A stretch of 27,883 nucleotides of DNA from a virus, in the IMG/VR virus record IMGVR_UViG_3300000242_000120, positions 1-27,883 of that record. One strand, 5' to 3'. The position numbers were made by a program, and so were the translations under genes. A model generated the notes under the pieces. It saw only the letters and a list, made by a program, of their open reading frames with translations, did not search any database and was not told the DNA's origin. Position 1 is the first letter of the stretch; the number at the start of each line of letters is the position of its first letter. Of the stretch, positions 3,250 through 22,019 are shown piece by piece.

Positions 3250-3846
3250 TTAAAAAAAGTTTACGATATTTATTTCTTTTTCAAGCGCTGACATTAAAAC
3301 ACCTTTAAAAGCTATGTTTTCAGCTTGCGCCTTATTGAAGTAAAATGGCTCATCGTTAATATAGAAATGGCCACCTCCATAATGATTGTAATGGATTTTT
3401 GATATGTATGGTTTATTGTAATATTCAAGAAGCATTACTCTACCCTTTTGATAAGTTGTAGTTTTCCAAAAGAATAGTTTTGATAATTCATCTTCAGTTA
3501 CACAGATTACATCATCCAATACAGTAGATATACTGACAGGCATAACTTCTTTAAGTGTGCCTTCTATCCTTTCGTACGATCGAAATGATAGAGAGTTATC
3601 ATTTCGGAGAGAGAAGGGGTTTCCAACAATAACATCAATCGAAGTATTATAAAATCCAGATAGAGTAATTAAGTCGCGAATTCCAATCTCTCTAGCGCCA
3701 ACTTCGTAGTTTAAATATCCTTGTCTAGACTTTCCAATAATCTTTGCAACATTGGTTGTTGAAAGATTATGTTTAAGTCTTAATCGTTTTAAGCTTTCAC
3801 TAATAAATAATTTATTTAAATCTTCTTCTGACTTTTCGGGTTCCAT
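3250..3846 (-). CDS. CI-like XRE-family repressor
   Basis: A 198-residue protein with an N-terminal helix-turn-helix of the XRE/lambda-repressor class at about residues 17-75. The C-terminal half (about 110-198) has a strand-rich pattern, including KGRVMLLEYYNKPYISKI, which resembles the S24/LexA dimerisation fold. I cannot find a GDSM-like catalytic serine, so self-cleavage may be lost. GAGG sits seven bases before the ATG. The gene reads leftward, divergent from the early operon and away from the control region at 3847-4087, exactly as a lysogeny repressor should. It probably represses the rightward genes and its own promoter. The early-operon antirepressor is its likely antagonist. Confidence 0.82.
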   Translation of the reverse strand: MEPEKSEEDLNKLFISESLKRLRLKHNLSTTNVAKIIGKSRQGYLNYEVGAREIGIRDLITLSGFYNTSIDVIVGNPFSLRNDNSLSFRSYERIEGTLKEVMPVSISTVLDDVICVTEDELSKLFFWKTTTYQKGRVMLLEYYNKPYISKIHYNHYGGGHFYINDEPFYFNKAQAENIAFKGVLMSALEKEINIVNFF

Positions 3847-4389: not shown

Positions 4390-5298
4390 ATGAATAAAGG
4401 CAATTCCCTGAAGACCTACATTAGTGAATACATTGAGTATATTGATTTAAAAGAAAATACTAAAGTAGGATATGAAAGGATTTTATTAGAGTTTGCAACT
4501 TATGTGGACAGATTACCTAACCTACCAACTAGGAAAGATGTCATTAATTATCGAGAGAAAATTAAAAGAAGATTAAAAGCTTCATCAGTACAGAAACATA
4601 TAGTAGTTATTAGAAATTTCTATAGATGGTATTCCATTGAAGGTTATGGACAAAATATAGCTGAAGGTGTAAAAGGAATGAAAATAGAATCTAATTTTAA
4701 AAGAGAAGCCCTAACGGTTAATGATTCTATTAAACTACTAAAAAGAGCTGAGGAATTGGCTGAACAAGACATTGTGAAATTAAGAAATTATGCTTTAATT
4801 GCATTGCTCATTACTACAGGACTAAGAACTATTGAAGTGGAAAGGGCTGATTTTGATGACATTGTCCAATCTGATGATATAAACATTCTGTATGTTAGAG
4901 GTAAAGGAAGAGATGAGAAAGCAGATTATGTGAAGTTGTCTCCTCAAATTTTCAGAATAATTGAAGCATATATGTACGAACGATCTGATAGTTACGAGCC
5001 GTTGTTCATTAATCACGATTATAAAAACATAGGAACAAGGATTAAAACACGAACTATTAGAGGAGTAGTAAAAGAATATTTACGGCTGATAGGAATAGAT
5101 AACCCTAGATATTCAGCACATAGTTTAAGGCATACAACAGCTACCCTTTCATTAGAAGAAGGGGCTACTATTGATGAAACACAACAATTATTAAGGCATA
5201 AGGACCCATCTACAACACAAATCTATGTTCATAGAATGAAAAAAAGAAAAGAGAATTATGAAAAAAAGATAAGTGATAGATTGTTTGGAAAAGAATAA
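4390..5298 (+). CDS. Tyrosine recombinase (XerC/D-like integrase)
   Basis: 302 residues, the length of XerC/XerD and small phage integrases. An N-terminal SAM-like core-binding domain occupies about residues 5-95. The catalytic domain shows Arg145 (TTGLRTIEV), Lys172 (GKG), His244-x-x-Arg247 (HSLRH), His270 (RHKDP) and the nucleophile Tyr279 (IYVH), so all active-site residues are present. It is the second gene of the rightward early operon rather than standing beside an att site. This suggests induction-dependent work such as excision, resolution of multimers or inversion. That it coexists with two serine recombinases in one element is odd. It could alternatively be the true integrase, with the serine pair belonging to a neighbouring element. 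Confidence 0.9.
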   Translation: MNKGNSLKTYISEYIEYIDLKENTKVGYERILLEFATYVDRLPNLPTRKDVINYREKIKRRLKASSVQKHIVVIRNFYRWYSIEGYGQNIAEGVKGMKIESNFKREALTVNDSIKLLKRAEELAEQDIVKLRNYALIALLITTGLRTIEVERADFDDIVQSDDINILYVRGKGRDEKADYVKLSPQIFRIIEAYMYERSDSYEPLFINHDYKNIGTRIKTRTIRGVVKEYLRLIGIDNPRYSAHSLRHTTATLSLEEGATIDETQQLLRHKDPSTTQIYVHRMKKRKENYEKKISDRLFGKE

Positions 5299-5325: not shown

Positions 5326-6075
5326 ATGATTAAAGAATTTGCAAATGCTGATTATGGCGTAGTAAGAACTACTTTAATTGATGAACAACCATACTTTTGC
5401 TTAGTTGATGTTGCTAGAATGTTTGGGATCAAGAACGTTCAGAATTGTAGAACGAAGATACCTTCAAGTGATATTGCTACAGTAGAAGTAGGTAATAAAA
5501 AAAGTTCTGAGAATAAAATATTTTTTACTGCGAAATACTTAACCACATGCCTCTTCACTTCAAAGAGGGCAGAAGCAGAAATGATTTTTGATTGGTTAAA
5601 TAGAGTATGTTTACCACAATTATTAAAGTATTATGACTACCAAATTGAAGATTTTAGTGATCCAGACACAATAATAAAGTTCCTAGATGAATATCAGGAT
5701 TTAAGAGTCAAGAATACAGTGCTAGAGACTTCGATTAAATTGAATGGGCCTAAGATAAAATCTATAGATAAACTTTTAGGTTCCTCAAGCTGTATTGATT
5801 TAGATATTATTCATGAAGTACTAAAGTTTCATGGAATAAGAAATATGGAACTATTGAGGATCCTGCGAGCTACTCACATCCTTGATGAGAAAAATCAACC
5901 TTATCAGGAATATTGTGATCGAAAGTATTTTAGAGTCATTGAAGCAAAAGTAGTCGCAGGTGGAAGTATAGTAACTTCTAATAGAACATATGTATATAAA
6001 AGTGGAATAGCATTTATTGAAAGAATTTTGAAAGACTATGAGGTGAAGCGAAATGTTAAGAACCAGGATAGATGA
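5326..6075 (+). CDS. Phage antirepressor, Bro-N plus ANT/KilA-C type
   Basis: 249 residues in two parts. The N-terminal ~105 residues match the Bro-N pattern (PYFCLVDVARMFGIKN, then FDWLNRVCLPQL). The C-terminal ~120 residues resemble the KilA-C/ANT domain, with MELLRILRATHILDEKNQPYQEY followed by a strand-rich YFRVIEAK...TYVYKSG stretch. Proteins of this kind bind DNA and antagonise CI-type repressors during induction. The start is an ATG preceded by CCGGAGGATGAATT, a strong ribosome site. It lies in the early operon 28 bases after the recombinase and overlaps the next gene by 23 bases. Confidence 0.85.
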   Translation: MIKEFANADYGVVRTTLIDEQPYFCLVDVARMFGIKNVQNCRTKIPSSDIATVEVGNKKSSENKIFFTAKYLTTCLFTSKRAEAEMIFDWLNRVCLPQLLKYYDYQIEDFSDPDTIIKFLDEYQDLRVKNTVLETSIKLNGPKIKSIDKLLGSSSCIDLDIIHEVLKFHGIRNMELLRILRATHILDEKNQPYQEYCDRKYFRVIEAKVVAGGSIVTSNRTYVYKSGIAFIERILKDYEVKRNVKNQDR

Positions 6076-6253
6076 AACAACTTACACAATCAATGAAGTA
6101 ATGGAAAAGACTGGATTTACAAGAAGAACAACAATGTCACATATTAAACAACGAAAACTTATTGCTTACAGAATTGGAAATCACTGGAAAGTCAGTGAAA
6201 TTGAGTTAACAAACTACATTAATACAATAAGGAAACGTAAGAAACACACCTAA
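6053..6253 (+). CDS. Excisionase-like helix-turn-helix protein
   Basis: A 66-residue basic protein with the winged-helix excisionase pattern (HTH_17/MerR-like): YTINEVMEKTGFTRRTTMSHIKQRKLIAYRIGNHWKVSEIELTNYI, where I see the helix-turn-helix followed by the wing and a closing helix. GAGGTG lies seven bases before the ATG, inside the end of the antirepressor gene. Its position three genes after a recombinase, in an induced operon, fits a directionality factor. It could equally be a small regulator of the downstream replication gene. Confidence 0.75.
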   Translation: MLRTRIDETTYTINEVMEKTGFTRRTTMSHIKQRKLIAYRIGNHWKVSEIELTNYINTIRKRKKHT

Positions 6254-6265: not shown

Positions 6266-6300
6266 TACCGGTAATGCTAGTGACCGGTGCAGTCATACAG
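6266..6300 (+). repeat. 35-bp direct repeat, copy 1
   Basis: Begins TACCGGTAAT and ends with CAG. It is identical to 12274-12308 at 32 of 35 positions, differing at repeat positions 11 (G/A), 19 (C/G) and 33 (C/G). It is richer in G and C than its surroundings. In this copy ACCGGT occurs twice, ten bases apart, and flanking CTGTA/TACAG could close an outer stem. It fills most of the gap between the excisionase-like gene and the replication gene. Its identity is not known to me: it could be an integration border, a regulator binding site or a structured RNA. Confidence 0.75.
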
Positions 6301-6311
6301 TAAATAGCTAA

Positions 6312-7124
6312 ATGGCGCGACCTTATAAAAGTGGGTTGGAATACTTCCCACTGGACGTGCATGTTTTTGAGGACCCAAAGCTGGAGTCACTCATTTATCA
6401 TTATGGACCCTTCGGTTCGTCTGTATATATCCGTATCTTAACTCTTGTCTATGGTAGCGGATATTACCTAGAATTGACAATCGATGAACTTGCGTTGAAA
6501 TTACACAAGTTATTTGGACCACATTGGATAAAGGTGGACAAGATCTTGGATATAATTCACGCCTGTGTTGAGCTTCGACTCTTTGAAAGAGCGCTCTTTC
6601 TACAGGGTGTAGTTACATCAGTATCTATACAGCGACAGTATATTCTTTCAACTAAAAGAAGGAAGAATATTGATATCGACAAGTATTGGTTGTTAGATTC
6701 CGCAACTATGGAACAATTAGGGGTCCTTTTAAACATGCAAAAAAATATAGATAATGTAAACAATAACTCAATTAATGTAAACAATAACTCAATTAATGTT
6801 AGCAATAGTACACAAAGTAAAAGGAAAAGTAAAAGAGATAAAAAAGATAAATTAGATAAAAGCATTTATGGGTTCCCCAAAATGCATTTTCTTACTAAGC
6901 TTCTTATTGAAAGAAAGTACTTAGAAGAAACACCAGGAGATATTATTAAATATAACAACTTGTTTGGAGAAGTTATTGGAACTTATGGATATGAACAGAC
7001 CTTAAGTGGAGTAAACTATCTTATTAGTTATGCAAAAAGAGCAAGTATTAAAATTGATGATCCATATAATTTTTTAAAGACTTCATTATTAAACAATATG
7101 GATATGCTTAGAAGAAGAGAATAG
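6312..7124 (+). CDS. Phage replication initiator-like protein (Lin1244/Lin1753 N-domain, DnaD-like C-terminus)
   Basis: 270 residues. The first ~110 match the Lin1244/Lin1753 N-terminal family (MARPYKSGLEYFPLDVHVFED...YGPFGSSVYIRILTLVYGSGYY), a winged-helix region seen in phage DnaD/replisome-loading proteins. A basic, low-complexity linker with tandem heptads (residues about 148-190) leads to a C-terminal helical segment (about 195-265) resembling a DnaD-like module. The start fits the family's MARP beginning, and a TAA immediately upstream in frame blocks any extension. Yet there is no Shine-Dalgarno site, only the repeat. The first ~350 bases are visibly richer in G and C and use C-ending codons, unlike the A/T-rich second half, so the gene looks like a recombinational mosaic. 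Confidence 0.75.
   Translation: MARPYKSGLEYFPLDVHVFEDPKLESLIYHYGPFGSSVYIRILTLVYGSGYYLELTIDELALKLHKLFGPHWIKVDKILDIIHACVELRLFERALFLQGVVTSVSIQRQYILSTKRRKNIDIDKYWLLDSATMEQLGVLLNMQKNIDNVNNNSINVNNNSINVSNSTQSKRKSKRDKKDKLDKSIYGFPKMHFLTKLLIERKYLEETPGDIIKYNNLFGEVIGTYGYEQTLSGVNYLISYAKRASIKIDDPYNFLKTSLLNNMDMLRRRE
6753..6794 (+). repeat. Two tandem 21-bp units in the replication gene linker
   Basis: Two identical 21-base units (6753-6773 and 6774-6794), followed by a degenerate third, encode NVNNNSI-NVNNNSI-NVSNSTQ. The length is a multiple of three, so copy-number change would keep the frame. Slippage here would only alter linker length between the two domains. Confidence 0.85.
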
Positions 7125-7131
7125 AGAAAGG

Positions 7132-7566
7132 ATGAGTCTTTTGAAGAATGGTTTGAATCAAGAGTTTTACATGTGGATAGATGATGTTAGAAGAGCTTTT
7201 AGAAAAAAAGAAGAATTAGAAATAGAACTTAAGGAGTTTGAGAGAAGACTAAATGGTTATAATGCAGTTAGTTATGATTTGATAGGTGAGAAAAGTTCAA
7301 GTACCTGTAAAGAATCAAAATTATTAAGTTTATTGTCGAAAATAGAAGAAATAAATTTGAAGAAATTTCAATATCAGAAACTTATTAAAGAATATTTTTA
7401 TCTAATAGAGCGTTTAGACAATGATGATATCAGTATAATTCATCCTGATTTATTAAATTATAAAGTTTCACCATATTATAGTATTGAAAGAGTATCCAAA
7501 AATAAGAGACGTCTAGTAATTAACAGATTCGCAAGAATTTATTCTCTTTATAAAAACAGTCTATAA
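7132..7566 (+). CDS. Coiled-coil phage protein, possibly a DUF1492/ArpU-like regulator
   Basis: About 144 residues: a long charged coiled coil at about 20-50 and 60-95 (KKEELEIELKEFERRL; KIEEINLKKFQYQKLIKEY), then a short basic C-terminal part rich in arginine and lysine. This layout resembles the small late-transcription or DUF1492 regulators of Firmicutes phages, but I cannot see a clear sigma-region-4-like helix-turn-helix. The start is uncertain: AGAAAGG touches the ATG at 7132, so the TTG at 7141 is better spaced. The gene begins eight bases after the replication gene and is probably co-transcribed with it. Confidence 0.6.
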   Translation: MSLLKNGLNQEFYMWIDDVRRAFRKKEELEIELKEFERRLNGYNAVSYDLIGEKSSSTCKESKLLSLLSKIEEINLKKFQYQKLIKEYFYLIERLDNDDISIIHPDLLNYKVSPYYSIERVSKNKRRLVINRFARIYSLYKNSL

Positions 7567-7581
7567 TATCCTATTTTGTTG

Positions 7582-7590
7582 TGTTATAAT
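7582..7590 (+). promoter_or_regulatory. Extended -10 promoter of the restriction-modification operon
   Basis: TGTTATAAT is a consensus extended -10 about 58 bases before the restriction gene. No good -35 is present, which is usual for extended -10 promoters. The two palindromes that follow directly would overlap the start point of transcription. Confidence 0.6.
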
Positions 7591-7616
7591 AAAATCATGA
7601 TTTTACTGCAGTAAAA
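7591..7616. promoter_or_regulatory. Two overlapping perfect palindromes downstream of the promoter
   Basis: AAAATCATGATTTT (7591-7604) and TTTTACTGCAGTAAAA (7601-7616) are perfect dyads sharing four bases. They begin right after the -10, where a bound dimer would block initiation. Restriction-modification operons are often timed by controller proteins or by the methylase binding its own promoter, and this arrangement fits such an operator. A hairpin in the leader RNA is the alternative. Confidence 0.6.
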
Positions 7617-7647
7617 AAAACTTAGTTTGATAAGGAAGATGATATTG

Positions 7648-10635
7648 ATGAATAAAAATCAGTTTACAAGTGTTGTTAAGCATTTTGGGGAAAATATTCA
7701 ATACTACAAAAGTAAAAAAAACTCCTATAACGAAGATTCTTGTCGAATTGAGTATATTGATAAGTTGCTTTCTTTTTTTGGTTGGGATGTAAATAATGAA
7801 CAAAATGTTCAACCACAGTATAGAGAAGTTATTGTTGAAAAATTTGATGAAAACATGAATAGACCGGATTATACTCTTACGTATAGAGGTATTACAAAAC
7901 TTTTTATAGAAGCAAAAAAACCATCAGTGGATATTTTGAACTCAATAGATTCTATTATGCAGACCAGAAAGTATGGTTGGAATGCTAAACATAAGATTTC
8001 AGTTCTCACAAATTTTGAATTTCTTGTGATTTATGATACAAGCTTAGTACCTTTAAATAGTGATGATTTTTCAGTTGGACTTTTTAGAAAGTATCATTTC
8101 TCTGAGTATATATCTAAATATGATGAAATACATCAGTTACTCTCAAAACAGTCAATATATGACGGTTCATTTGATCTGCATTTATCAACACTGATTATCG
8201 AAAATGAGAGACACTATAAATATGTTGATGATTATTTTTTAGAAAAAATGAATAAATGGAGAATTAAAATTAGTAATGACTTATATGAAACAAACTCATC
8301 AAAATATTCTGATTTAGGATTTCTTAATGATTCTGTACAAAGATTTATTAATAAACTTGTATTCCTGAGGATTTGTGAGGACCGAAACCTTTCTAAATAT
8401 CATAAATTGAAGGACATATCTCAGATGAATGATAAACTGATAAACAGGTTAAATGAGTTGTTTATGGAAGCGGATTTAAAATATAATTCTGGACTATTTA
8501 AGTTGAATGAAATTACATTTGATTTATCAAACTACAATATAATGGAAATTATTGAAGATTTGTATTATCCACAAAGTCCTTATATGTTTAACATTATTGA
8601 ACCAAACATTCTTGGGAAAATATATGAAATGTTTTTAACGGAAAGTCTGGTTATTGATGGAAATAAAATAGTTTTAGCTAAGAAGAAAGAATGTATAAAT
8701 AGATCCATAGTAACAACACCAGTAGAAATCGTAAAATTTATGGTTGGAGATTCCTTAGGAAAAATTTTAGAAGGTAGAACTCCGGATGAAATACAAGAAA
8801 TGAAATTTGGTGATATTGCATGTGGATCAGGAATATTTTTAGAAGAAATTTTTGATTATATTTCCAACTTTTTTATTAATTGGTATCTATTAAATAAACC
8901 TGATATATTAGAATATTCAGACAGAGGATTGTATAAATTACCAATTAGTATAAAGAGAGATATCCTGAAAAATTGTATTTTTGGTATTGACATAGATTTA
9001 CAAGCTGTTGAAGTAACAAAGTTTTCATTGCTAATTAAATTACTAGAAGGTGAAACTAGAGCTACAATAGAAAATGATTTACCAATATTGCCTGTCATTG
9101 ATCTAAATATCCAATGTGGGAATTCTCTCATAGATGAAGGGCAATTATCCATATTTGAATTTAAACATTCTGATTTATATGAAATTGTACCTTTTAATTG
9201 GGAAAACATAGTTATTGATAAACCATTTGATTTAATTATTGGTAATCCGCCATATGTTAAAACAGAAGATATGCATAATTTATTAAACGAAGTTGAATTC
9301 AATGTCTACAGGGAATTTTACACATCAGCTTATAAACAGTTTGATAAGTATTTTATTTTTATAGAGAGGGCTATTAAACATTTAAATCAAGATGGATATT
9401 TGAGTTTTATAGTTCCTAATAAATTCCAGAAGATTGGATCTGGTTTGAAACTTCGAGAAATACTATCTGAAAACAAGCCATTAATTGAGATTTATGATTT
9501 TGGAGATACACAACTATTTAAAGATAAAACAATATATAGTTCAATTCTTACATATAAAAAATCATCCGATGACACTTTTGTATATAAAACAATAACCAAT
9601 TTGCATGATTTGCTAATAGGAAATTTTGTGTCCGAGACAAGGATGCGAGTTTCGAACTTAAATAATGATTTGTGGAGCTTTAACGCTGATATATATCTTA
9701 AAGAGATAAAAGACAAAGTGAAACCTATTACTAATTTCGTTGATATTTTTAATGGAATCCAAACTTCTGCGGAGAGACCTAAACCTATATATTGGTTTAC
9801 ATCTAATGAAATTTACTCATCAGATGAGTCAAATTACTATATTAGAAAGAATGGTAAATCATATAAAATTGAGAAAGAAATAACTAAAGATTATTTTAAA
9901 CCCGTGACTAAAGTTGAAAAAGGGTTAAATTCATACTCTAAATTAATTACTAACAAAGTAATAATTTTTCCATATAATAAAAGAGGAAAATTAATTAATC
10001 ATTTTGAATTTCAACAAGATTTTCCTGGTACATTTGAGTATTTGATGGATAATTACGAGAAACTTGTACCAAAACAAGTAAATCCAGAGATAGGTACTAG
10101 AGATGTACCAAGAGCAGATAATCAAACATGGTATCAATATGGTAGAACTCAAGGCTTAACAGCTTTTATTGATGTAAGAAAGCTTATTGTTGGTGTTTTA
10201 AGTAGAGAACCTATGTACATTATTGATGACGATGATATGCTAATTTCTTCTGGAGGAACTGCAGGGTATTGTGCAATCACTTTAAAAGATGATTGTCCTT
10301 ATTCTTTAGAATATATTCAAGCATGGTTATCTGCTTCAATTACAGAAAAAATAATAAGAGATTATGGCAGCCCATTTGAAGGAGGGTTTATTTCGAGAGG
10401 AACATCTGTTTTAAAAAAGATAAAAATTTATCCATTAGACTTAAATAATAGTGAGGATTATTCAATTCATGAATTTATTGTGTCTAACTCAAATGAAATA
10501 AGTCAAATTAATAACCTTTTGTCAATTGAAGATAATAGATTAAAGTGTAAAATTTTAGAGGATAGAAAGTTAAAACTTATAAAGGATATAGATGATACTA
10601 TAGTTAATATTTATCAGAGAGGACGAACAACATGA
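7648..10635 (+). CDS. Type IIG (Eco57I-like) restriction-modification fusion protein
   Basis: A 995-residue single-chain enzyme. The N-terminus is a PD-(D/E)XK nuclease: Asp74 (RPDY) and Glu88-Ala-Lys90 (FIEAKKP). The middle is a gamma-class adenine methylase with SAM motif DIACGSGIF (about 389-397) and catalytic GNPPYVK (about 532-538). The C-terminal third resembles a TaqI-like target-recognition domain. It should methylate and cut at one asymmetric site, with SAM as donor and often as cofactor for cutting. I place the start at the ATG at 7648, with AAGGAAG upstream; other starts at 7639 or 7645 are possible. The next gene overlaps by four bases. BREX PglX is an alternative for the methylase part, but no pglZ or brx gene is near and the nuclease motif is intact. 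Confidence 0.88.
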   Translation: MNKNQFTSVVKHFGENIQYYKSKKNSYNEDSCRIEYIDKLLSFFGWDVNNEQNVQPQYREVIVEKFDENMNRPDYTLTYRGITKLFIEAKKPSVDILNSIDSIMQTRKYGWNAKHKISVLTNFEFLVIYDTSLVPLNSDDFSVGLFRKYHFSEYISKYDEIHQLLSKQSIYDGSFDLHLSTLIIENERHYKYVDDYFLEKMNKWRIKISNDLYETNSSKYSDLGFLNDSVQRFINKLVFLRICEDRNLSKYHKLKDISQMNDKLINRLNELFMEADLKYNSGLFKLNEITFDLSNYNIMEIIEDLYYPQSPYMFNIIEPNILGKIYEMFLTESLVIDGNKIVLAKKKECINRSIVTTPVEIVKFMVGDSLGKILEGRTPDEIQEMKFGDIACGSGIFLEEIFDYISNFFINWYLLNKPDILEYSDRGLYKLPISIKRDILKNCIFGIDIDLQAVEVTKFSLLIKLLEGETRATIENDLPILPVIDLNIQCGNSLIDEGQLSIFEFKHSDLYEIVPFNWENIVIDKPFDLIIGNPPYVKTEDMHNLLNEVEFNVYREFYTSAYKQFDKYFIFIERAIKHLNQDGYLSFIVPNKFQKIGSGLKLREILSENKPLIEIYDFGDTQLFKDKTIYSSILTYKKSSDDTFVYKTITNLHDLLIGNFVSETRMRVSNLNNDLWSFNADIYLKEIKDKVKPITNFVDIFNGIQTSAERPKPIYWFTSNEIYSSDESNYYIRKNGKSYKIEKEITKDYFKPVTKVEKGLNSYSKLITNKVIIFPYNKRGKLINHFEFQQDFPGTFEYLMDNYEKLVPKQVNPEIGTRDVPRADNQTWYQYGRTQGLTAFIDVRKLIVGVLSREPMYIIDDDDMLISSGGTAGYCAITLKDDCPYSLEYIQAWLSASITEKIIRDYGSPFEGGFISRGTSVLKKIKIYPLDLNNSEDYSIHEFIVSNSNEISQINNLLSIEDNRLKCKILEDRKLKLIKDIDDTIVNIYQRGRTT

Positions 10636-12254
10636 AATTGAAATCAGAAATGACTGATAAAAAGTTAAGAGGTGTATATTATACACCTGAGAAATTAGCA
10701 AAATATATTGTAGAGAAGCTAGTTGACAAAGATACAACAAATAAAATATTAGAACCTAGTTGCGGAGATGGAGTTTTTATTGAAGCAATATCTGCAAACG
10801 AAGAGATATTAGATTACCATATTACCTCAGTTGAAATAGATGAAGATGAAATTAACAAACTGAATAAAAAGTATAACAAAAATCCTAAACACGAGATTAT
10901 TCATAGTGATTTCTTTAGATTCTATTTTGAAAAAAAAGAACACAAATATGATTTAGTCATAGGTAACCCTCCATACATAAGATATCAGTATCTAGATAAC
11001 GAACAGAGGGAAGAACTTTCTGAAATATTAAAGCACGAAGGAATGAAGTCCAACAAATTAATAAATGCTTGGGTAGGATTCACAGTAGCTTGTTCAACTA
11101 TGTTGAAAGAGAATGGAACCTTAATATTTGTTGTCCCTGCTGAGTTGCTGCAAGTAGTATATGCCAAAGATTTAAGAGAATTTTTATTAAAGAAATTTAA
11201 CGATATAACAATTGTAACTTTTTCAAAATTAATTTTTGATGAGATTGAACAGGAAACTGTAATATTGAAGTGTACCAACTCCAAAGAAAAGAAAGGTATT
11301 AGAGTTATTCAAGCAACAGACATTGCAGATTTTTCTCTGATTGATTTAGTTGATCACGAGTATATTGATGCTCCATGCTCAAAAGAGAAGTGGACTAAAT
11401 ATTTTACTAGTGCTGATGATATCAGAAAAATCAATAAAATTAAAGAAGATGCTCGTTTTCAAAAATTTTCCGATATTGCGAAGATTAATGTTGGAATCAC
11501 TACAGGTAACAATAAGTATTTTTCATTAGATAAGAAAACTGTAAATGAATATGATTTATTCAAAGTAAGTTACCCATTGATTGGAAGAAGTTTGCATGTA
11601 AGGGGTTTGCATTTCAAAACTAAAGACTATCTAGAAAATTATGAAAACAATAAGAAATCTAGATTGCTTGTATTTGAAGAAGATAGAACTAACTTGAACA
11701 ATCTTCAAAATAAATATATTTCGTTGGGTGAAGACAATAATGAGCATATAGGATACAAATGCTCTATTAGAGAAAATTGGTATCAAATACCATCGATTTG
11801 GATACCAGATGCATTCTTTTTGAGAAGAAACAACATTTATCCAAAGTTTGTATTAAATGAAATAGATGCATTATCAACAGATACAATGCATAGAATTGCT
11901 TTTAAGGACGGTATAAATAAAGAAAATGTTTTACTATCTTATTATAATAGTGTTTCTATGGCATTTACTGAGATGAATGGTAGAAGTTATGGTGGTGGTG
12001 TTCTAGAAATTTTGCCAAGTGAGGTTGGAGATATTCTTTTACCAAGGATTGAAGATTTACCAATTAATCTTCAAACGAAACTAATTAAAAAAATTGATAA
12101 GATAATTAGAGATACCAAAGATATCGAATTAGTTCTTGATATAGTTGATAATGAAATTTTAATAAATTATCTAGGCATATCAGAATCTGTATGCAAAGAT
12201 TTTAGAAATATATGGAAAAAGATGCAAAGCAGAAGATTAGGACGGGCAAGATAA
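10632..12254 (+). CDS. Adenine-specific DNA methyltransferase (Eco57I/TaqI family)
   Basis: 540 residues. An N-terminal GVYYTPEKLA segment precedes motif I LEPSCGDGVF (about 40-49) and motif IV GNPPYIRYQ (Asn112-Tyr115), giving a gamma-class N6-adenine methylase. The C-terminal half (about 260-480) looks like a target-recognition domain with KINVGITTGNNKYF. There is no nuclease motif. It overlaps the type IIG gene in an ATGA junction with GAGAGG nine bases before the ATG, so both are made together. Eco57I-type systems carry just such a second methylase, which modifies the strand the fusion enzyme does not. It is less likely to be an unrelated orphan methylase. Confidence 0.9.
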   Translation: MKLKSEMTDKKLRGVYYTPEKLAKYIVEKLVDKDTTNKILEPSCGDGVFIEAISANEEILDYHITSVEIDEDEINKLNKKYNKNPKHEIIHSDFFRFYFEKKEHKYDLVIGNPPYIRYQYLDNEQREELSEILKHEGMKSNKLINAWVGFTVACSTMLKENGTLIFVVPAELLQVVYAKDLREFLLKKFNDITIVTFSKLIFDEIEQETVILKCTNSKEKKGIRVIQATDIADFSLIDLVDHEYIDAPCSKEKWTKYFTSADDIRKINKIKEDARFQKFSDIAKINVGITTGNNKYFSLDKKTVNEYDLFKVSYPLIGRSLHVRGLHFKTKDYLENYENNKKSRLLVFEEDRTNLNNLQNKYISLGEDNNEHIGYKCSIRENWYQIPSIWIPDAFFLRRNNIYPKFVLNEIDALSTDTMHRIAFKDGINKENVLLSYYNSVSMAFTEMNGRSYGGGVLEILPSEVGDILLPRIEDLPINLQTKLIKKIDKIIRDTKDIELVLDIVDNEILINYLGISESVCKDFRNIWKKMQSRRLGRAR

Positions 12255-12273
12255 AACATATCTAAACATCATA

Positions 12274-12308
12274 TACCGGTAATACTAGTGAGCGGTGCAG
12301 TCATAGAG
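12274..12308 (+). repeat. 35-bp direct repeat, copy 2
   Basis: Matches 6266-6300 in the same orientation at 32 of 35 positions. It lies 19 bases after the methylase stop and about 100 bases before the ATPase gene, so the two copies bracket about 6 kb that include the replication protein and the whole restriction-modification pair. In this copy the second ACCGGT is changed to AGCGGT, weakening the inner stem possible in copy 1. A small GGCTA/TAGCC hairpin follows at 12314-12327. Confidence 0.75.
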
Positions 12309-12356
12309 AAAAAGGCTAGAATTAGCCAAACTGAAAATTCTATTTAAATTACTCAA

Positions 12357-12389
12357 AAAGTGCTACAATATTAATGTAGTACTTTTTTT
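12357..12389 (+). terminator. Terminator after the restriction-modification operon
   Basis: Eleven-base arms AAAGTGCTACA (12357-12367) and TGTAGTACTTT (12375-12385), with one G-T pair and a seven-base loop, run into further T. It separates the restriction-modification pair from the ATPase gene. Confidence 0.75.
12361..12369 (+). promoter_or_regulatory. Candidate extended -10 for the ATPase-nuclease operon
   Basis: TGCTACAAT is a near-consensus extended -10 lying inside the left arm of the terminator. Transcripts starting near 12376 would lack that arm and so escape termination. No clear -35 is present; the call rests on the absence of any better promoter between the terminator and the ATPase gene. 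Confidence 0.35.
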
Positions 12390-12414
12390 ATAATCAAAAA
12401 GGGAGATGGAAAAA

Positions 12415-14625
12415 ATGGGAATAGAAATCAATTTTAATAATCCAGATACTAATAAACCTATTTCACTAAATATCGAAAAAGAATTAACATTCATTTATGG
12501 TGGTAATGGTACTGGAAAAACTACTCTGAGTAGACAGCTAAATCAGAAAGAACATGCAGTTTTCAATACTGATTTTGTTAATAAAAATGTTTTTGTTATA
12601 GGTGATACTGGAGCAAAATGTGATGCAAAGAACAAAGAAAAATTTTCTGAACTTTTTCTTGGAGAAGATGCTGTAAAATTAGCTAGAGAAGTAGTAGATA
12701 TGAAAGAGAAAAATAAAATATATATAAAGCTAAAAGAAACTAGTCAGAAAGATATGAATTCAATATTAAGAGAAAACAGTTTAAACATAATTGGTGATTT
12801 TTCTGAACTATTCAAAAAGATAAAATATGAGTTTACTTTCGATTACAAGATTGAACCTACTAAACTATTAGAGACATTTAAGTTAAATAGTACTCTTAAA
12901 ACAAGTATTAAAGATGATGACGAATATGAGAAAAACTATAAAATGTTTAAAGATTTTAGTATTCGAGTAAAAGTAAGAAGCACAATTGAGGAAGATGTAG
13001 TTTTAAAAAGTATTTTCGTTGATGAGAAGTTTGATTTTTTAGAATTTCAACTTAATAACTATTTAAGCTATATGAATGAACTTGAATCATTGGAAAAATC
13101 ATTTTCATCACATGGAAAGACGTCGGAAGTCAAGAACTGGGTTAAATCAGGGTTAGATTTACATAAAGGCAAAAGCAATTGCATTTTGTGTGAAAACACA
13201 AATATTAATGATCAATTAAATCAATGGAAAGAGCGTTTAGAAAATAAACATATTGAAAATAAAAGATTACTTTTAAATCAAATTAAAGATGTTGTTAAAT
13301 CATTAGATAAGATTGTTGTAAATAAAGATTTATATGAAATAGTTACTGAGAAGATTGTTAATACTGCTGTAAGAATCAAGGATAAATTTGTTGAGTATTC
13401 TTCACTAATTTCTAAAAATAAATTTTTACAAATAAAACACATTGATATTGAAAAAGATGATATTTGGAGAGAACAACAGACAATAATTAATGAATTAAGT
13501 AATTATCAAATTAATAAACATCTAAAGAGCTTGATATTCTATAGTGATTTTAGTGATTTATTTGAAATTAAGATGAATGAAATAATTGCCCTTTCAAAAA
13601 AAGAAAATCAAGATTACGCTGATAAAACAGCAAAAGTGATTAATGATATTTCTACTAAATTGGGATTTGATAAAGATATTAAAATTGAGTTAGATAACAG
13701 AGGTGCAATGCCGAAAATAAGTCTTGGGGCTGATAACAAAACAAGAAATATCGCTAACTATAGTGAAGGGCAAAGACATAAATTAGCCCTTTCAATCTTT
13801 TTTGCAAATTTATTGGGCAACGAAAATGATTATGATATTTTACTATTAGATGACCCTGTAATTTCATTAGATGTTTTTGCTTATCATGCAATTAAAGTGA
13901 TTCTTTTAGACAAAGAAATAGTAGAAAGAAGAAAGAAACTAGTAATTTTAACTCATAATATACATTATTTATATGTGCAAATGTCTAATATTTTAGACAG
14001 CGATGTCTTGAGAGAATTAACTGCATTATATGAATTAACACCTTATCAAATTATTAATGTTGAACCTGAACTTCTCAAATTTGATGATATTTTATTATTT
14101 ACAAGCCTTTTAAACAATTTGAACGATATTGAGGATTTATCCCTTACATATTGGTTATCGTCAAAAATTGGTAGAATCTTTTTAGATTTAAAATTAAGAA
14201 TGTCAGGAATTAGTTCAAAAGGTGTTCCAAACACAGAGATAAGAGAATTGGTATTACCAATTGAATTAGAAGAAGCATTATCAAAGAAATTTTCAAGATT
14301 AGCTAAATTATGCAAAAAGAAAACAGTTTATGTAAAAACTGCAGTGGAGGCAATTACTATTCTAACTGATGTCATTCGTTTGTTGGAGTTTCCTCAGATA
14401 TTTGATTTAGAGAATTTAAATATTTATGATAATGAATTAGAATTGCCCTTAAATTCATTTCCAAATGCAAAAGAGCTTAAGCAAGAAATTGCATTATTTG
14501 CTAAAAAGATTAATTTTCCTGAGCAAGATACTCCTCAACTAGAGGAATTACAAAATTATATAAATCATCCAAGACATCAAATAACAGAAAGTATTTTTGG
14601 TATAAGATCTTCAAAAGAATATTAA
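12415..14625 (+). CDS. AAA_13-family SMC-like ATPase with zinc-hook motif (RloC/PrrC-like)
   Basis: 736 residues. The Walker A is GGNGTGKTT (29-37). Two coiled-coil arms flank a CILC motif (Cys256, Cys259), a Rad50-type zinc hook. The signature YSEGQRHKLALS (about 449-460), Walker B DILLLDDP and H-loop ILTHNIH follow. The last ~220 residues form an all-helical domain ending near NHPRHQ. The head-hook-head order is that of RloC, whose C-terminus is a tRNA anticodon nuclease, but I cannot identify the nuclease triad here. AAGGGAG lies nine bases before the ATG at 12415 and would overlap an ATG at 12406, so I choose 12415. The RAMA nuclease follows after 18 bases, so the ATPase may be its partner or regulator. 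Confidence 0.85.
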   Translation: MGIEINFNNPDTNKPISLNIEKELTFIYGGNGTGKTTLSRQLNQKEHAVFNTDFVNKNVFVIGDTGAKCDAKNKEKFSELFLGEDAVKLAREVVDMKEKNKIYIKLKETSQKDMNSILRENSLNIIGDFSELFKKIKYEFTFDYKIEPTKLLETFKLNSTLKTSIKDDDEYEKNYKMFKDFSIRVKVRSTIEEDVVLKSIFVDEKFDFLEFQLNNYLSYMNELESLEKSFSSHGKTSEVKNWVKSGLDLHKGKSNCILCENTNINDQLNQWKERLENKHIENKRLLLNQIKDVVKSLDKIVVNKDLYEIVTEKIVNTAVRIKDKFVEYSSLISKNKFLQIKHIDIEKDDIWREQQTIINELSNYQINKHLKSLIFYSDFSDLFEIKMNEIIALSKKENQDYADKTAKVINDISTKLGFDKDIKIELDNRGAMPKISLGADNKTRNIANYSEGQRHKLALSIFFANLLGNENDYDILLLDDPVISLDVFAYHAIKVILLDKEIVERRKKLVILTHNIHYLYVQMSNILDSDVLRELTALYELTPYQIINVEPELLKFDDILLFTSLLNNLNDIEDLSLTYWLSSKIGRIFLDLKLRMSGISSKGVPNTEIRELVLPIELEEALSKKFSRLAKLCKKKTVYVKTAVEAITILTDVIRLLEFPQIFDLENLNIYDNELELPLNSFPNAKELKQEIALFAKKINFPEQDTPQLEELQNYINHPRHQITESIFGIRSSKEY

Positions 14626-14643
14626 GAACGAAGGGGAGATAAT

Positions 14644-15630
14644 ATGTACACATTGAAAGATAATAAAGTGTCGAAAATTGAAAGAACTACTTTTTTTGCA
14701 TTAGGAATGACTGAAAATGACATAGAAGAACTTTTGAGAAATAGCATTGATATGCTTTGTGATGATGAAGAATCGTTGTTGATTATAGGAAGACAAGTGA
14801 AAAATGAGAGATTAGGAAGAAGTGATTTGACTGCTATAGATAACAATGGTAAAGTTGTTTTAATAGAAATAAAACGTGATAAAAAGGATATTAAGAGTAG
14901 AAAGGAAGCTTTTGAATTTCAGGCAATAAGATATGCAGCTAGCTATGCGACAATTGAATCAGTAGAAGAACTAGTTAAAAAAGTATATGCACCCTATATT
15001 GATAAGTATAAAATCGAGTTTAATATAGGTGAATTAACATCCTACGAATTAGGTATAAGAAAAATTAATGAATTCTTAAAGACAAATGATTCAGATGATA
15101 AATTTAACTTTAAACAAAGGATAATTCTAGTTGCATCTGAATTTGATGCTCAAACACTATCAGCAGTTGCGTGGTTAAACAGTAACAATGTTGATATAAG
15201 TTGTTTTGAGTTGATTCCATTCAAGTTTGGGGAAGAAGTTACATTACAGGCTGAGAAAATACTTCCATTAACAAAATATGATGATTATTATGTGAATCTT
15301 TTAGATAACTCTTCTCCTAATAAAGGAATGAAGAAACAAATAACTAGACGTTCACTTCCCAAAATTGATGCGATGCTGGATTGGGGTGTGATTAATGCTG
15401 GAGATATTATTAAGGCAAAAGGAACTGAAAACTCTGCAATACTTTTAGCTAATGGAAATGTTGATGTAAATGGAGAAGAAATGTCAATGCAAATCTGGCT
15501 GAAGGAAATATATGGTTGGTCAAGTGTACAAACCTATGCATTTGCTATTCATCAAGCAACTGGAAAACTTTTACAAGACCTAAGAGACGAGTATATGACT
15601 AAAAAGGCAACAGAAGTAATATCAGAATAG
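14644..15630 (+). CDS. PD-(D/E)XK nuclease fused to a RAMA domain
   Basis: 328 residues. The N-terminal half is a NucS/DUF91-like nuclease fold: GRSDLTAIDNNGKVVLIEIK with Asp61, Glu75 and Lys77, then Gln93 and Arg96-Tyr97 (EFQAIRYA), completing the usual active-site pattern. The C-terminal segment, about 236-318, matches the RAMA (restriction enzyme and adenine methylation associated) pattern: LDWGVINAGD...AILLANGNVDVNG...IYGWSSVQTYAFAIHQATGKLLQDLRDEY. RAMA domains are predicted to recognise modified DNA. The protein is thus likely a modification-dependent or modification-guided nuclease. GAAGGGGAG lies before the ATG. It sits 18 bases after the ATPase gene and ahead of a terminator, making a two-gene unit. 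Confidence 0.82.
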   Translation: MYTLKDNKVSKIERTTFFALGMTENDIEELLRNSIDMLCDDEESLLIIGRQVKNERLGRSDLTAIDNNGKVVLIEIKRDKKDIKSRKEAFEFQAIRYAASYATIESVEELVKKVYAPYIDKYKIEFNIGELTSYELGIRKINEFLKTNDSDDKFNFKQRIILVASEFDAQTLSAVAWLNSNNVDISCFELIPFKFGEEVTLQAEKILPLTKYDDYYVNLLDNSSPNKGMKKQITRRSLPKIDAMLDWGVINAGDIIKAKGTENSAILLANGNVDVNGEEMSMQIWLKEIYGWSSVQTYAFAIHQATGKLLQDLRDEYMTKKATEVISE

Positions 15631-15719
15631 ATTTATATACTGTGCTCAGTGCAGGTAGACAAAAGTTGACAAATCAAGTATGCTTTAAATATCGTGGATA
15701 AATATAATTTACGATGAGA

Positions 15720-15745
15720 GGAAATCAATATTGGTTTCCTTTTTT
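15720..15745 (+). terminator. Terminator after the nuclease-RAMA gene
   Basis: GGAAATCAAT (15720-15729) and ATTGGTTTCC (15730-15739) form a stem with one G-T pair and a tight tip, followed by six T. It closes the ATPase-nuclease operon about 90 bases after the stop. A TTGACA (15666-15671) and a TATAAT (15703-15708) lie upstream but not at promoter spacing from each other. Confidence 0.75.
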
Positions 15746-15793
15746 GATACAAAAATAAAGATAGTAAGTTTTCGACGAAAGGAGAATTTGCAA

Positions 15794-16246
15794 ATGCCCA
15801 AAGATACGTATTTAAAATGGAAAGTAGAAGGATCACTAGAAGATAAACTTAAAACGATAAAAGAGATGATTGCAAAAAAGATAACTCAAAAGGATATTGC
15901 AGAGGTTTTAGGTATATCAGAAAGAGTACTGATAAAACTAAAAAAAGAACATTCAGATGTTATGAATGCATTTATATTTGGGAATCAAGAATTAAAGGAT
16001 ACTTTAGTAAATGCAATATATGAGAGAGCTGTTGGAGTCACTAGAGAAGATGTTACGACAACAATTGAAGAGATTGCAAATGGTAAGAAAAAGAAAATAT
16101 CTAGAACAATTAGAAAATATCCACCGGATGCTAATGCTGCTAGATATTTGTTAATAACCAAATTTGGACGAGAGCATAATGAGAAAAGAGAAGAGATAGA
16201 TTTAATGTATAAGAAGCAAGAAGATAAGAATGAAAAATGGTCTTAA
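15794..16246 (+). CDS. Helix-turn-helix DNA-binding phage protein
   Basis: 150 residues. A helix-turn-helix of transposase/terminase-small-subunit type is at about residues 15-50 (IKEMIAKKITQKDIAEVLGISERVLIKLKKEH), followed by a segment with strand-rich and charged parts and a closing ITKFGREHNEKREE helix. The ATG at 15794 has AAAGGAG nine bases upstream; a longer frame to 15731 crosses the terminator and is rejected. A separate terminase small subunit is present at 21684, so a packaging role is unlikely. Such proteins often stand before ParB-methylase fusions in Firmicutes phages, as here. Confidence 0.6.
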   Translation: MPKDTYLKWKVEGSLEDKLKTIKEMIAKKITQKDIAEVLGISERVLIKLKKEHSDVMNAFIFGNQELKDTLVNAIYERAVGVTREDVTTTIEEIANGKKKKISRTIRKYPPDANAARYLLITKFGREHNEKREEIDLMYKKQEDKNEKWS

Positions 16247-16275: not shown

Positions 16276-17487
16276 ATGAAAATACATCAAATTGATATAA
16301 AACAATTGCTAGAATATGATAATAATCCTAGACAAAATGAAAATGCAGTTGATGCTGTAGAGAATAGTATAAAAGAGTTTGGGTTCAAGGTTCCGATTGT
16401 TATAGATAGGAATAATATTATTATCGCAGGTCATACTCGTTTACTAGCAAGTAAGAAGCTAGGACTAGAAACTGTTCCATGTATTATTGCAGATGATTTA
16501 AGCAATGAGCAAATAAAAGCATTTAGGTTAGCTGACAATAAGACAGCGGAGTTTGCTACTTGGGATTTAAGTAAATTAGAAAATGAACTAAAAGAAATTG
16601 ATATGGATATGCTTCAGTTTGGATTTGAAGAACTTGAAGAAGTATTTCCAGACAATGCATCTGATGATGATTTTAATATCGATGATGAATTGTCAGAAAA
16701 ATCCTATTCTCAACCTGGAGATATATTTGAATTGAACGGACATAGATTAATGTGTGGAGATTCAACAAAACCAGAAGATGTTAAGAAATTAGTTAATAAT
16801 GAAAAAATGGATATGATATTTACAGATCCTCCTTATAATGTAGATTATGAAGGAAGTGCAGGAAAGATAAAGAATGATAAGATGGAAGACAATAGCTTCT
16901 ATCTTTTTTTATTGGACGCTTTTACAAATATGTTTGATTCAATTAAACATGGAGGTTCGATTTATGTTTGTCATGCTGATACTGAAGGACTTAACTTTAG
17001 AAATGCTTATAAAAATGCTGGGTTTAAATTAGCTGAGTGTTTAGTTTGGGTTAAGAACGCATTAGTCCTTGGTAGACAAGATTATCATTGGAGACATGAA
17101 CCAATCCTTTATGGTTGGAAAGAAGGAGCAGCTCATTACTTTATTGATGATCGTACTCAAGATACTATTTGGGAATACAATAAACCTAAAAGAAATGACA
17201 TTCATCCTACAATGAAACCATTAGAACTTGTAGGAAGAGCAATATCAAACTCATCAAAACCTAAAGAAAAAATCCTAGATCTATTTGGTGGTTCAGGTTC
17301 AACAATGATTGCATCTGATCAATTAGGTAGAAAAGCATACTTAATGGAACTAGATGAAAAGTTTGTTGATGTAATTGTGAAAAGGTACATAAAACATACA
17401 GAATCAAATGAGAACTGTTTCTTAATTCGCAATGGTAAAAGAACTCCACTACATAAAGTATTAGAGTTTGAAAATATCTTACTATAG
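16276..17487 (+). CDS. ParB-domain/DNA methyltransferase fusion
   Basis: 403 residues. Residues ~1-100 are a ParB/Srx-like domain: EYDNNPRQNENAVDAVENSIKEFGFKVPIVID, then IIAGHTRLLASKKLGLETVPCI. Residues ~150-395 are a beta-class methylase with catalytic TDPPYNVDYEG (about 184-194) and a downstream SAM motif ILDLFGGSGST (about 333-343). Motif order IV before I marks the beta class; DPPY suggests N6-adenine or N4-cytosine methylation. These are common orphan methylases in Firmicutes phages and probably protect phage DNA from host restriction. It follows the HTH gene by 29 bases. With the type IIG pair it makes three methylase domains in the window. Confidence 0.9.
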   Translation: MKIHQIDIKQLLEYDNNPRQNENAVDAVENSIKEFGFKVPIVIDRNNIIIAGHTRLLASKKLGLETVPCIIADDLSNEQIKAFRLADNKTAEFATWDLSKLENELKEIDMDMLQFGFEELEEVFPDNASDDDFNIDDELSEKSYSQPGDIFELNGHRLMCGDSTKPEDVKKLVNNEKMDMIFTDPPYNVDYEGSAGKIKNDKMEDNSFYLFLLDAFTNMFDSIKHGGSIYVCHADTEGLNFRNAYKNAGFKLAECLVWVKNALVLGRQDYHWRHEPILYGWKEGAAHYFIDDRTQDTIWEYNKPKRNDIHPTMKPLELVGRAISNSSKPKEKILDLFGGSGSTMIASDQLGRKAYLMELDEKFVDVIVKRYIKHTESNENCFLIRNGKRTPLHKVLEFENILL

Positions 17488-21683: not shown

Positions 21684-22019
21684 ATGTCAAAAACATCACA
21701 AGTAAACTACGAATATAATCGTTTGAAGAAGTTATTTTTAAACGTTAATGATACAAAATCAGAGCTTGTTGATAGCTTAATTCAGCAAGCAGCTTTTATG
21801 AAGATAGAACTAGATAATCTTCAAGTAAAAATTAAGAAGTATGGAACTGTTCAAATTTCTAGTAAAGGTGCACAGAGGCAAACTGAGTCTGCCAAGTATT
21901 ATACTAAACTTGTTAATACGTATGGGACAGTAATTAAAACGTTAAATATCATTCTTGGAAAAACAGTAGATGATAGTGATGATGCTTTCGAAGAATTCCT
22001 TAAAAAGGTTAACTCTTAA
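21684..22019 (+). CDS. terS: Terminase small subunit (P27-like)
   Basis: 111 residues, starting at the ATG with GAGGTGG five bases upstream (a GTG nine bases earlier is too close to that site). The protein is helical, with VDSLIQQAAFMKIELDNLQVKIKKYG and QRQTESAKYYTKLVNTYGTVIKTLNIILGK, the usual layout of the P27 family, including an N-terminal DNA-recognition part and an oligomerisation helix. It recognises the packaging start on phage DNA and passes it to the large subunit. The stop overlaps the large subunit start (TAATG), so the two are made in a fixed ratio. Confidence 0.8.
   Translation: MSKTSQVNYEYNRLKKLFLNVNDTKSELVDSLIQQAAFMKIELDNLQVKIKKYGTVQISSKGAQRQTESAKYYTKLVNTYGTVIKTLNIILGKTVDDSDDAFEEFLKKVNS

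What the first reader, a model, noticed from the sequence alone, without database searches (positions are those of the whole stretch)
7582..15745. Composite prophage defence island: type IIG pair plus zinc-hook ATPase plus RAMA nuclease
Seen: an Eco57I-like nuclease-methylase fusion, a partner adenine methylase, an AAA_13 ATPase with a CxxC hook and a PD-(D/E)XK-RAMA protein stand in a row on one strand, with terminators after each pair. Known: RloC/PrrC-type ATPases are linked to type I restriction loci, and RAMA domains occur with adenine methylases. Inference: here the guard pair is attached to a type IIG system, possibly sensing loss of methylation or restriction inhibition and firing a second nuclease. 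I do not know a described system with this four-part make-up.
Basis: partly seen in the sequence, partly recalled or inferred. Interest (0 to 1): 0.72.

Follow-up and report, generated by a model that had tools for sequence, protein, structure and literature searches.

The report
Prophage defence slot, two stacked cargoes
A dormant virus carries, in a spot where its relatives keep swapping defence genes, an ordinary DNA-cutting/DNA-marking pair plus a second, rarer pair (an ATP-driven sensor-like protein and a DNA-cutting enzyme with a mark-reading domain) that looks like an add-on borrowed from other defence systems rather than a dedicated four-part machine.

Summary
The four genes are real and sit where stated: Eco57I-type IIG enzyme (7627-10635), M.Eco57I-like methylase (10632-12254), zinc-hook AAA_13 ATPase (12406-14625), PD-(D/E)XK-RAMA protein (14644-15630), with a terminator after each pair. 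They fill a prophage defence slot between a DnaD-like replication gene and a TerS/ParB-methylase pair. Relatives carry other cargo there: type I R-M, BpuSI, Gabija, GmrSD, Shedu, AbiH. The nuclease-RAMA does not depend on the ATPase. It follows three type I families in the same phage family, and follows BREX, type I or Hachiman genes on chromosomes; none of ~70 homologues neighbours the ATPase. The ATPase subfamily is rare and lacks the RloC tRNase triad. A relative of the same IIG+methylase pair (52/55%) has a PHP-ABC ATPase instead of this ATPase and nuclease. So: two stacked modules, not one four-part system. The second module lies outside a pair of conserved phage sites that bound the cargo in relatives. 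The nuclease is most likely an accessory, modification-gated restriction nuclease; the ATPase is a guard-like sensor of unknown effector. New points: NucS-like and GIY-YIG RAMA nucleases occupy the same place behind swapped R-M systems, and paired L/R sites bracket the cargo.

The parts
6266..6310 (+). Left copy (L-site) of a paired conserved phage site, core CCGGTAA-TGCTAG-TGACCGG
   Evidence: 87% identical to 12274-12318; core found only twice in the window; same layout in relatives
6312..7124 (+). DnaD-like/Lin1244 replication initiator, left backbone flank of the slot
   Evidence: PF14297 6e-16, phrog_2562 4e-41; conserved in slot phages
7132..7566 (+). Small ORF, last left-flank gene; left exchange breakpoints fall in or just after its 3' part
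7627..10635 (+). Type IIG restriction-methylase (Eco57I family), probable start ATG 7648
   Evidence: PADLOC REase_MTase_IIG 4e-250, Eco57I 8e-37, HSDR_N 7e-9
10632..12254 (+). M.Eco57I-like N6-adenine methylase, overlaps the IIG stop by 4 nt
   Evidence: M_Eco57I_C 3e-43, MTase_II 2e-181
12274..12318 (+). Right copy (R-site) of the paired site, spacer TACTAG
12355..12387 (+). Intrinsic terminator after pair 1
   Evidence: -13.5 kcal/mol, z -6.5
12406..14625 (+). Zinc-hook ABC/AAA_13 ATPase (RloC/PrrC-like head, altered C-terminal domain)
   Evidence: AAA_13 5e-10, PDC-S06 2e-14; C259xxC262, SEGQ, DDP; RloC triad absent
14644..15630 (+). NucS-like PD-(D/E)XK nuclease fused to a RAMA domain
   Evidence: PDC-S11 4e-38; model Z 11.8 to EndoMS, 12.3 to CcrM CTD, 9.8 to MPND RAMA
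15716..15743 (+). Intrinsic terminator after pair 2
   Evidence: -12.7 kcal/mol, z -3.8
15731..16246 (+). TerS-like/HTH backbone gene, right flank of the slot (probable start ATG 15794)
   Evidence: conserved in slot phages
16276..17487 (+). Phage ParB-N/DNA methylase, right backbone flank
4390..5298 (+). Tyrosine recombinase with intact R-HxxR-H-Y motifs, conserved left of the slot
   Evidence: phrog_1 5e-43; motifs
6053..6253 (+). Small excisionase-like HTH protein (66 aa) directly before the L-site
   Evidence: equivalents of 60-80 aa before DnaD in the slot phages with enough left sequence

Best explanation
A temperate phage's exchangeable defence slot holding two stacked modules. Module 1 is a complete Eco57I-type R-M pair: the IIG enzyme cuts unmethylated DNA and the separate methylase protects host and prophage. 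Module 2, an extra insertion to its right, pairs a rare RloC/PrrC-like zinc-hook ABC ATPase with a NucS-like PD-(D/E)XK-RAMA endonuclease. Shown: genes, folds, active-site residues, module boundaries, independence of nuclease and ATPase. Inferred: the nuclease is a general accessory of methylation-based defence, a DNA endonuclease whose RAMA domain docks on DNA and gates cutting by modification state, catching phage DNA that escapes the first enzyme. The ATPase is inferred to be a guard-type sensor (DNA ends or blocked restriction) acting on the nuclease or through its own altered C-terminal domain. The four genes are a chance stack within one slot, not a dedicated four-part machine.
For: Same slot, other cargo in sister prophages: type I + same nuclease (L001, L002, L160), type I + GIY-YIG-RAMA (L083, L101), AbiH, Shedu, Gabija, GmrSD. 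L001 and L002 are 88% identical on both sides with unrelated R-M between, and homology restarts 10 nt before the nuclease. On chromosomes the nuclease has same-strand R-M, BREX or Hachiman genes within 5 kb upstream in 16 of 54 loci and downstream in 3; discordant loci 13:0, p 2.4e-4. BREX confirmed. Fold and catalytic residues. ATPase relatives lie by FokI R-M (L077) and by type I R-M (L071, a canonical RloC). R-site to TerS distance is about 290-330 nt in relatives but 3.46 kb here, so module 2 is extra.
Against: The ATPase and nuclease are 18 nt apart under one terminator and look co-transcribed, so they may act as a unit. More than half of the chromosomal nuclease relatives (mainly Bacillaceae) stand alone without detected R-M. 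Whether RAMA reads methyl-adenine is disputed (PMC11037411 cites no confirmed preference for MPND). Host DNA here should itself be adenine-methylated, which an uncontrolled m6A-dependent nuclease would attack. No activity data.
Confidence: 0.58

Rival explanations
1. Module 2 is a self-contained two-gene sensor-effector system (ABC ATPase senses, PD-(D/E)XK-RAMA cuts), built like Septu, PARIS or OLD-ABC/REase dyads, independent of the R-M pair.
For: 18 nt spacing and shared terminator; ATPase has lost the RloC tRNase triad, so it may need a separate effector; the pair entered as one insertion right of the R-site. OLD-ABC/REase dyads are documented beside BREX (PMC12839542).
Against: No other locus pairs them; each occurs without the other.
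Confidence: 0.25
2. One reading: the pair guards the type IIG system and fires when restriction is inhibited or methylation is lost.
For: PrrC and PARIS precedents (PMC12707154, PMC9122126); ATPase relatives beside FokI and type I R-M; an IIG relative in L089 carries a different ABC ATPase fused to a PHP domain in the corresponding place.
Against: L089 and L136 have the same IIG+methylase without this pair; a terminator and a phage site separate the modules; the nuclease follows unrelated R-M families.
Confidence: 0.12
3. The ATPase is a diverged anticodon nuclease (R590-X3-D594 with H721 as a rearranged RloC/PrrC site) that blocks translation, and the nuclease is unrelated cargo.
For: R590 and H721 are invariant in four subfamily members; zinc hook and ABC head as in RloC.
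Against: The defining R-X3-E-X36-52-H triad is absent in all four members, while a true RloC relative (L071) has it.
Confidence: 0.12

Closest known systems
Eco57I-type IIG restriction-modification
   Same: Fused R-M enzyme plus separate M.Eco57I-like methylase, overlapping genes
   Different: Carried in a prophage slot with a second module; specificity unknown
RloC / PrrC anticodon nucleases (PMC2610378)
   Same: ABC ATPase head split by an insert with a CxxC zinc hook; R-M-linked relatives
   Different: No R-X3-E-X36-52-H tRNase triad; different C-terminal domain ending NYINHPRxQIT; rare subfamily
PADLOC PDC-S11 and PDC-S14 candidate single-gene defence families
   Same: The nuclease half matches PDC-S11; the GIY-YIG-RAMA protein in the same slot of sister phages is PDC-S14
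   Different: PDC-S11 models match only residues 1-236, not the RAMA part; mechanisms undescribed
Type IV / RAMA-fusion endonucleases (GIY-YIG-RAMA, RAMA-Mrr-NTPase; PMC11037411)
   Same: Nuclease joined to a RAMA DNA-binding/reader domain
   Different: NucS-like PD-(D/E)XK catalytic domain, genetically tied to m6A-type R-M and BREX
Prophage anti-phage hotspots of P2/P4 (PMC9122126)
   Same: Variable defence cargo between two conserved phage genes
   Different: Other phage family; cargo up to about 8 kb, mostly R-M plus a 3' accessory gene; paired sites and a tyrosine recombinase at the slot

Membership tests
Eco57I-type IIG R-M | One polypeptide with a PD-(D/E)XK nuclease and an N6-adenine methylase | tested here: met
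   HSDR_N, Eco57I and PADLOC IIG 4e-250; NPPY and E-A-K motifs present
Eco57I-type IIG R-M | Separate companion methylase of the M.Eco57I type | tested here: met
   PF22837 2.8e-43
Eco57I-type IIG R-M | Cuts outside an asymmetric site, SAM-dependent | not testable with these tools
   needs purified enzyme
RloC | ABC ATPase motifs split by a coiled-coil insert with CxxC | tested here: met
   GGNGTGKT 32-39, C259/C262, SEGQ 453, DDP 482; zinc binding not testable
RloC | C-proximal R-X3-E-X36-52-H tRNase triad (PMC2610378) | tested here: not met
   only R590-X3-D594 near the C-terminus, next His about 127 residues on; L071 has the triad
PrrC | Linked to and held silent by a type Ic R-M enzyme | tested here: not met
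   linkage only: nearest R-M is type IIG, no type I genes next to it; silencing not testable
Type IV (modification-dependent) restriction endonuclease | Nuclease domain with intact active site | tested here: met
   D61, E75, K77 invariant; EndoMS-like fold Z 11.8
Type IV (modification-dependent) restriction endonuclease | Domain that reads modified bases | tested here: inconclusive
   RAMA fold matched, Pfam below cut-off; reader function disputed (PMC11037411)
Type IV (modification-dependent) restriction endonuclease | Cuts only modified DNA | not testable with these tools
   needs purified enzyme
PDC-S11 | HMM match | tested here: met
   3.8e-38 over residues 2-223 only
Prophage defence hotspot | Turnover of defence genes between fixed phage genes | tested here: met
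Four-part dedicated system | Parts recur together elsewhere | tested here: not met
   no recurrence in viral, plasmid, phage or genome searches; the genome search scores only the best few candidates per genome

The most novel reading that the evidence does not exclude
The slot is served by a dedicated exchange device. The conserved tyrosine recombinase and excisionase-like protein would act on a pair of dif-like sites, L and R. Their arms match within each phage, but their 6-nt spacers differ in every phage examined (L TG...G, R T[A/C/T]...G), so cargo can be swapped between phages without being deleted. Accessory RAMA nucleases and guards then ride on whichever R-M system is loaded.
Probability: 0.15. 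Interest if true: 0.75.

Novelty: new variant of a known kind. Interest (0 to 1): 0.46.

Why it matters
Nucleases with a RAMA domain, from two unrelated catalytic folds, occupy the same place behind swapped methylation-based systems in one prophage slot, and the NucS-like one also follows BREX. This makes a standing question testable: does RAMA read DNA modification, and why do self-methylating defences keep a modification-reading nuclease? The slot itself is a compact source of defence genes in a phage family not described as a hotspot in the papers read here.

Tried and rejected
A dedicated four-part system: rejected, parts do not recur together. Membership in RloC: rejected on the triad. 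AlphaFold of the ATPase alone: pLDDT 32, unusable. ATPase scans of viral contigs with the single protein and with a two-row profile: no relatives; phages: none; plasmids: one 23% match, an RloC. Single-protein and profile genome searches found the ATPase subfamily in only 4 genomes of about 1,640 (some genomes may have been drawn twice); the tool warns that empty answers prove little. A third copy of the site after the nuclease: not found (p 0.94). The direct repeat as a known RNA: no Rfam match. Recombination at the L-site as the left exchange point: not supported, DnaD travels with the backbone (87-99% identical in most same-clade pairs while the next ORF diverges).

Full report
WHAT IS THERE. 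The window is a viral record, a prophage-type genome: serine integrase (1240-2913, -), repressor (3250-3846, -), tyrosine recombinase (4390-5298), Ant-like protein (5326-6075), DnaD-like initiator (6312-7124), small ORF (7132-7566), the four genes of the finding, a TerS-like gene (15731-16246), a ParB/DNA-methylase (16276-17487) and the terminase large subunit (22019-23665). The four genes are intact and as described. The IIG and methylase genes overlap by 4 nt and have the signatures of RM.Eco57I and M.Eco57I. ATPase and nuclease are 18 nt apart with a good ribosome-binding site between them. Two intrinsic terminators, at 12355-12387 and 15716-15743, fold far better than shuffled sequence. 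The variable region has lower G+C, mostly 26-29%, than most of the backbone at 30-33%.

THE NUCLEASE-RAMA PROTEIN. An AlphaFold model built on 53 homologues shows two domains joined by a disordered linker (214-237). Residues 19-205 match the catalytic domain of NucS/EndoMS (Z 11.7-11.8) and, more weakly, Shedu. Residues 233-321 match the C-terminal DNA-binding domain of CcrM (Z 12.3) and the RAMA domain of MPND (Z 9.8). D61, E75 and K77 never vary in the 53 sequences. The protein is therefore very probably an active PD-(D/E)XK DNA endonuclease with a RAMA domain. Whether RAMA recognises N6-methyladenine is not settled: PMC11037411 reports that the preference was proposed for MPND but could not be confirmed.

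IT IS NOT TIED TO THE ATPASE. Two relatives (L001, L002) are prophages of the same family with the same nuclease (69%) in the same place, but behind two different type I R-M systems. L001 and L002 are 88% identical on both sides; between them the R-M genes are unrelated, and homology restarts 10 nt before the nuclease. On chromosomes, 65 loci were fetched. Same-strand R-M, BREX or Hachiman genes lie within 5 kb upstream in 16 of 54 evaluable loci and downstream in 3; discordant loci are 13 to 0, p 2.4e-4. These include BREX-1 pglX-pglZ-brxL (L054) and Hachiman (L007, L008, L043). Many Bacillaceae copies stand alone. A profile of the ATPase found no real homologue beside any of them (one weak 8.9e-5 match in L047, probably a generic ABC protein, inference).

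THE ATPASE. It has a complete ABC head and a CxxC hook. Its closest relatives are few: L075 (38%), L159 (38%), L076 and L077 (27-28%); L071 is more distant (21-27% depending on the alignment). L071 is a true RloC with the published R-X3-E-X36-52-H triad, next to a complete type I system. L077 stands beside a FokI R-M system and L076 beside an OLD-like nuclease (by sequence inspection). The window protein and its three close relatives in the alignment lack the triad; they keep R590-X3-(D/N) and an invariant H721. It is thus RloC-like in the head but not an RloC by the defining test. None of these ATPases has the nuclease as neighbour; G592 has both, in different elements.

THE SLOT. Using the ParB-methylase as anchor, 80 further viral loci were fetched. 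In the close relatives the stretch between the DnaD gene pair and the TerS gene holds R-M or other defence genes. Examples: type I + GIY-YIG-DUF4357/RAMA (L083, L101), type I + AbiH (L088), type I + DEDDh-BRCT (L093), BpuSI-type with Shedu (L096), Gabija (L145), D12-type methylases by inspection + GmrSD (L141), IetS-like (L082), PDC-S46 (L116). Two relatives (L089, L136) carry the same IIG + methylase pair at 52 and 55% identity, followed by a PHP-ABC ATPase instead of the window's ATPase and nuclease. This is a prophage defence hotspot in the sense of PMC9122126.

PAIRED SITES. A 45-nt direct repeat flanks pair 1: 6266-6310 and 12274-12318. Its core occurs only twice in the window (1 of 100 shuffles reaches two). 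Slot phages of several clades have the same arrangement with their own version of the sequence. The arm reads CCG(A/G)TAA or a near variant, followed by a 6-nt spacer. L copies have TG...G, R copies T(A/C/T)...G (the automatic L placement for L116 and R placement for L083/L085 in that output are misregistered and are not counted). In same-clade pairs with different cargo, right-hand homology restarts within about 16 nt of the R-site in most comparisons, however far the last cargo gene ends. Exceptions are pairs that share the nuclease or a neighbouring cargo gene and the more diverged pairs. The left breakpoints lie in or just after the small ORF, not at the L-site, and DnaD stays with the backbone, so exchange at both sites is not shown. 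An ordinary reading also fits: the R-site is simply the first base of a conserved backbone block. In relatives the R-site is about 290-330 nt from the TerS gene. In the window it is 3.46 kb away, because ATPase and nuclease stand between.

HOW IT PROBABLY WORKS. Pair 1 restricts unmethylated incoming DNA and marks the lysogen's own DNA (established for the family, inferred here). The nuclease-RAMA is a second-layer DNA nuclease (fold and residues shown; cutting and modification gating inferred). Its partners of different type mostly share DNA methylation, and a GIY-YIG nuclease with the same reader occupies the same place in sister phages; this is the main reason to think the RAMA domain matters for the partnership. 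The ATPase may license the nuclease or act as an independent guard; nothing here decides.

LITERATURE. RloC definition and R-M linkage: PMC2610378. Guards PrrC and PARIS: PMC12707154, PMC9122126. Auxiliary nucleases beside BREX: PMC12839542. A search for NucS/DUF91-type defence nucleases found no description of this protein. Only open-licence papers were searched.

Noticed in passing
window 6266-6310 and 12274-12318; L001 1617-1661 and 9994-10038; L088 493 and 9186; others: Paired L/R sites with clade-specific arms and systematically different 6-nt spacers flank the defence cargo; right-hand breakpoints of cargo exchange fall at the R-site.
   Followed up: partly
window 4390-5298 and 6053-6253: A second, tyrosine-type recombinase and an excisionase-like HTH protein sit next to the slot although integration is presumably done by the serine integrase at 1240-2913; conserved in slot phages.
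   Followed up: partly
L083 7149-8012, L101 7384-8235, L085 8086-8937: GIY-YIG-DUF4357/RAMA nucleases (PDC-S14) take the place of the PD-(D/E)XK-RAMA nuclease behind R-M genes in the same slot of sister phages.
   Followed up: partly
L089 5566-8034, L136: PHP-domain ABC ATPase (Ppl-like) follows a homologous IIG+methylase pair, where the window has its ATPase and nuclease.
   Followed up: partly
L160 (G592) and L075: A sister prophage with type I R-M plus the nuclease in the slot; a 38% homologue of the window's ATPase lies about 4 kb outside the serine-integrase end of that prophage.
   Followed up: partly
L054 1669-10996, L055, L058: Nuclease-RAMA is the gene directly after brxL in BREX-1 operons of Thermoanaerobacterium, Herbinix and Lutispora.
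   Followed up: yes
L075 8397-9749: A 450-aa protein of unknown family precedes the ATPase homologue; its C-terminal part looks HEPN-like by eye, but neither Pfam nor PADLOC matches.
   Followed up: no
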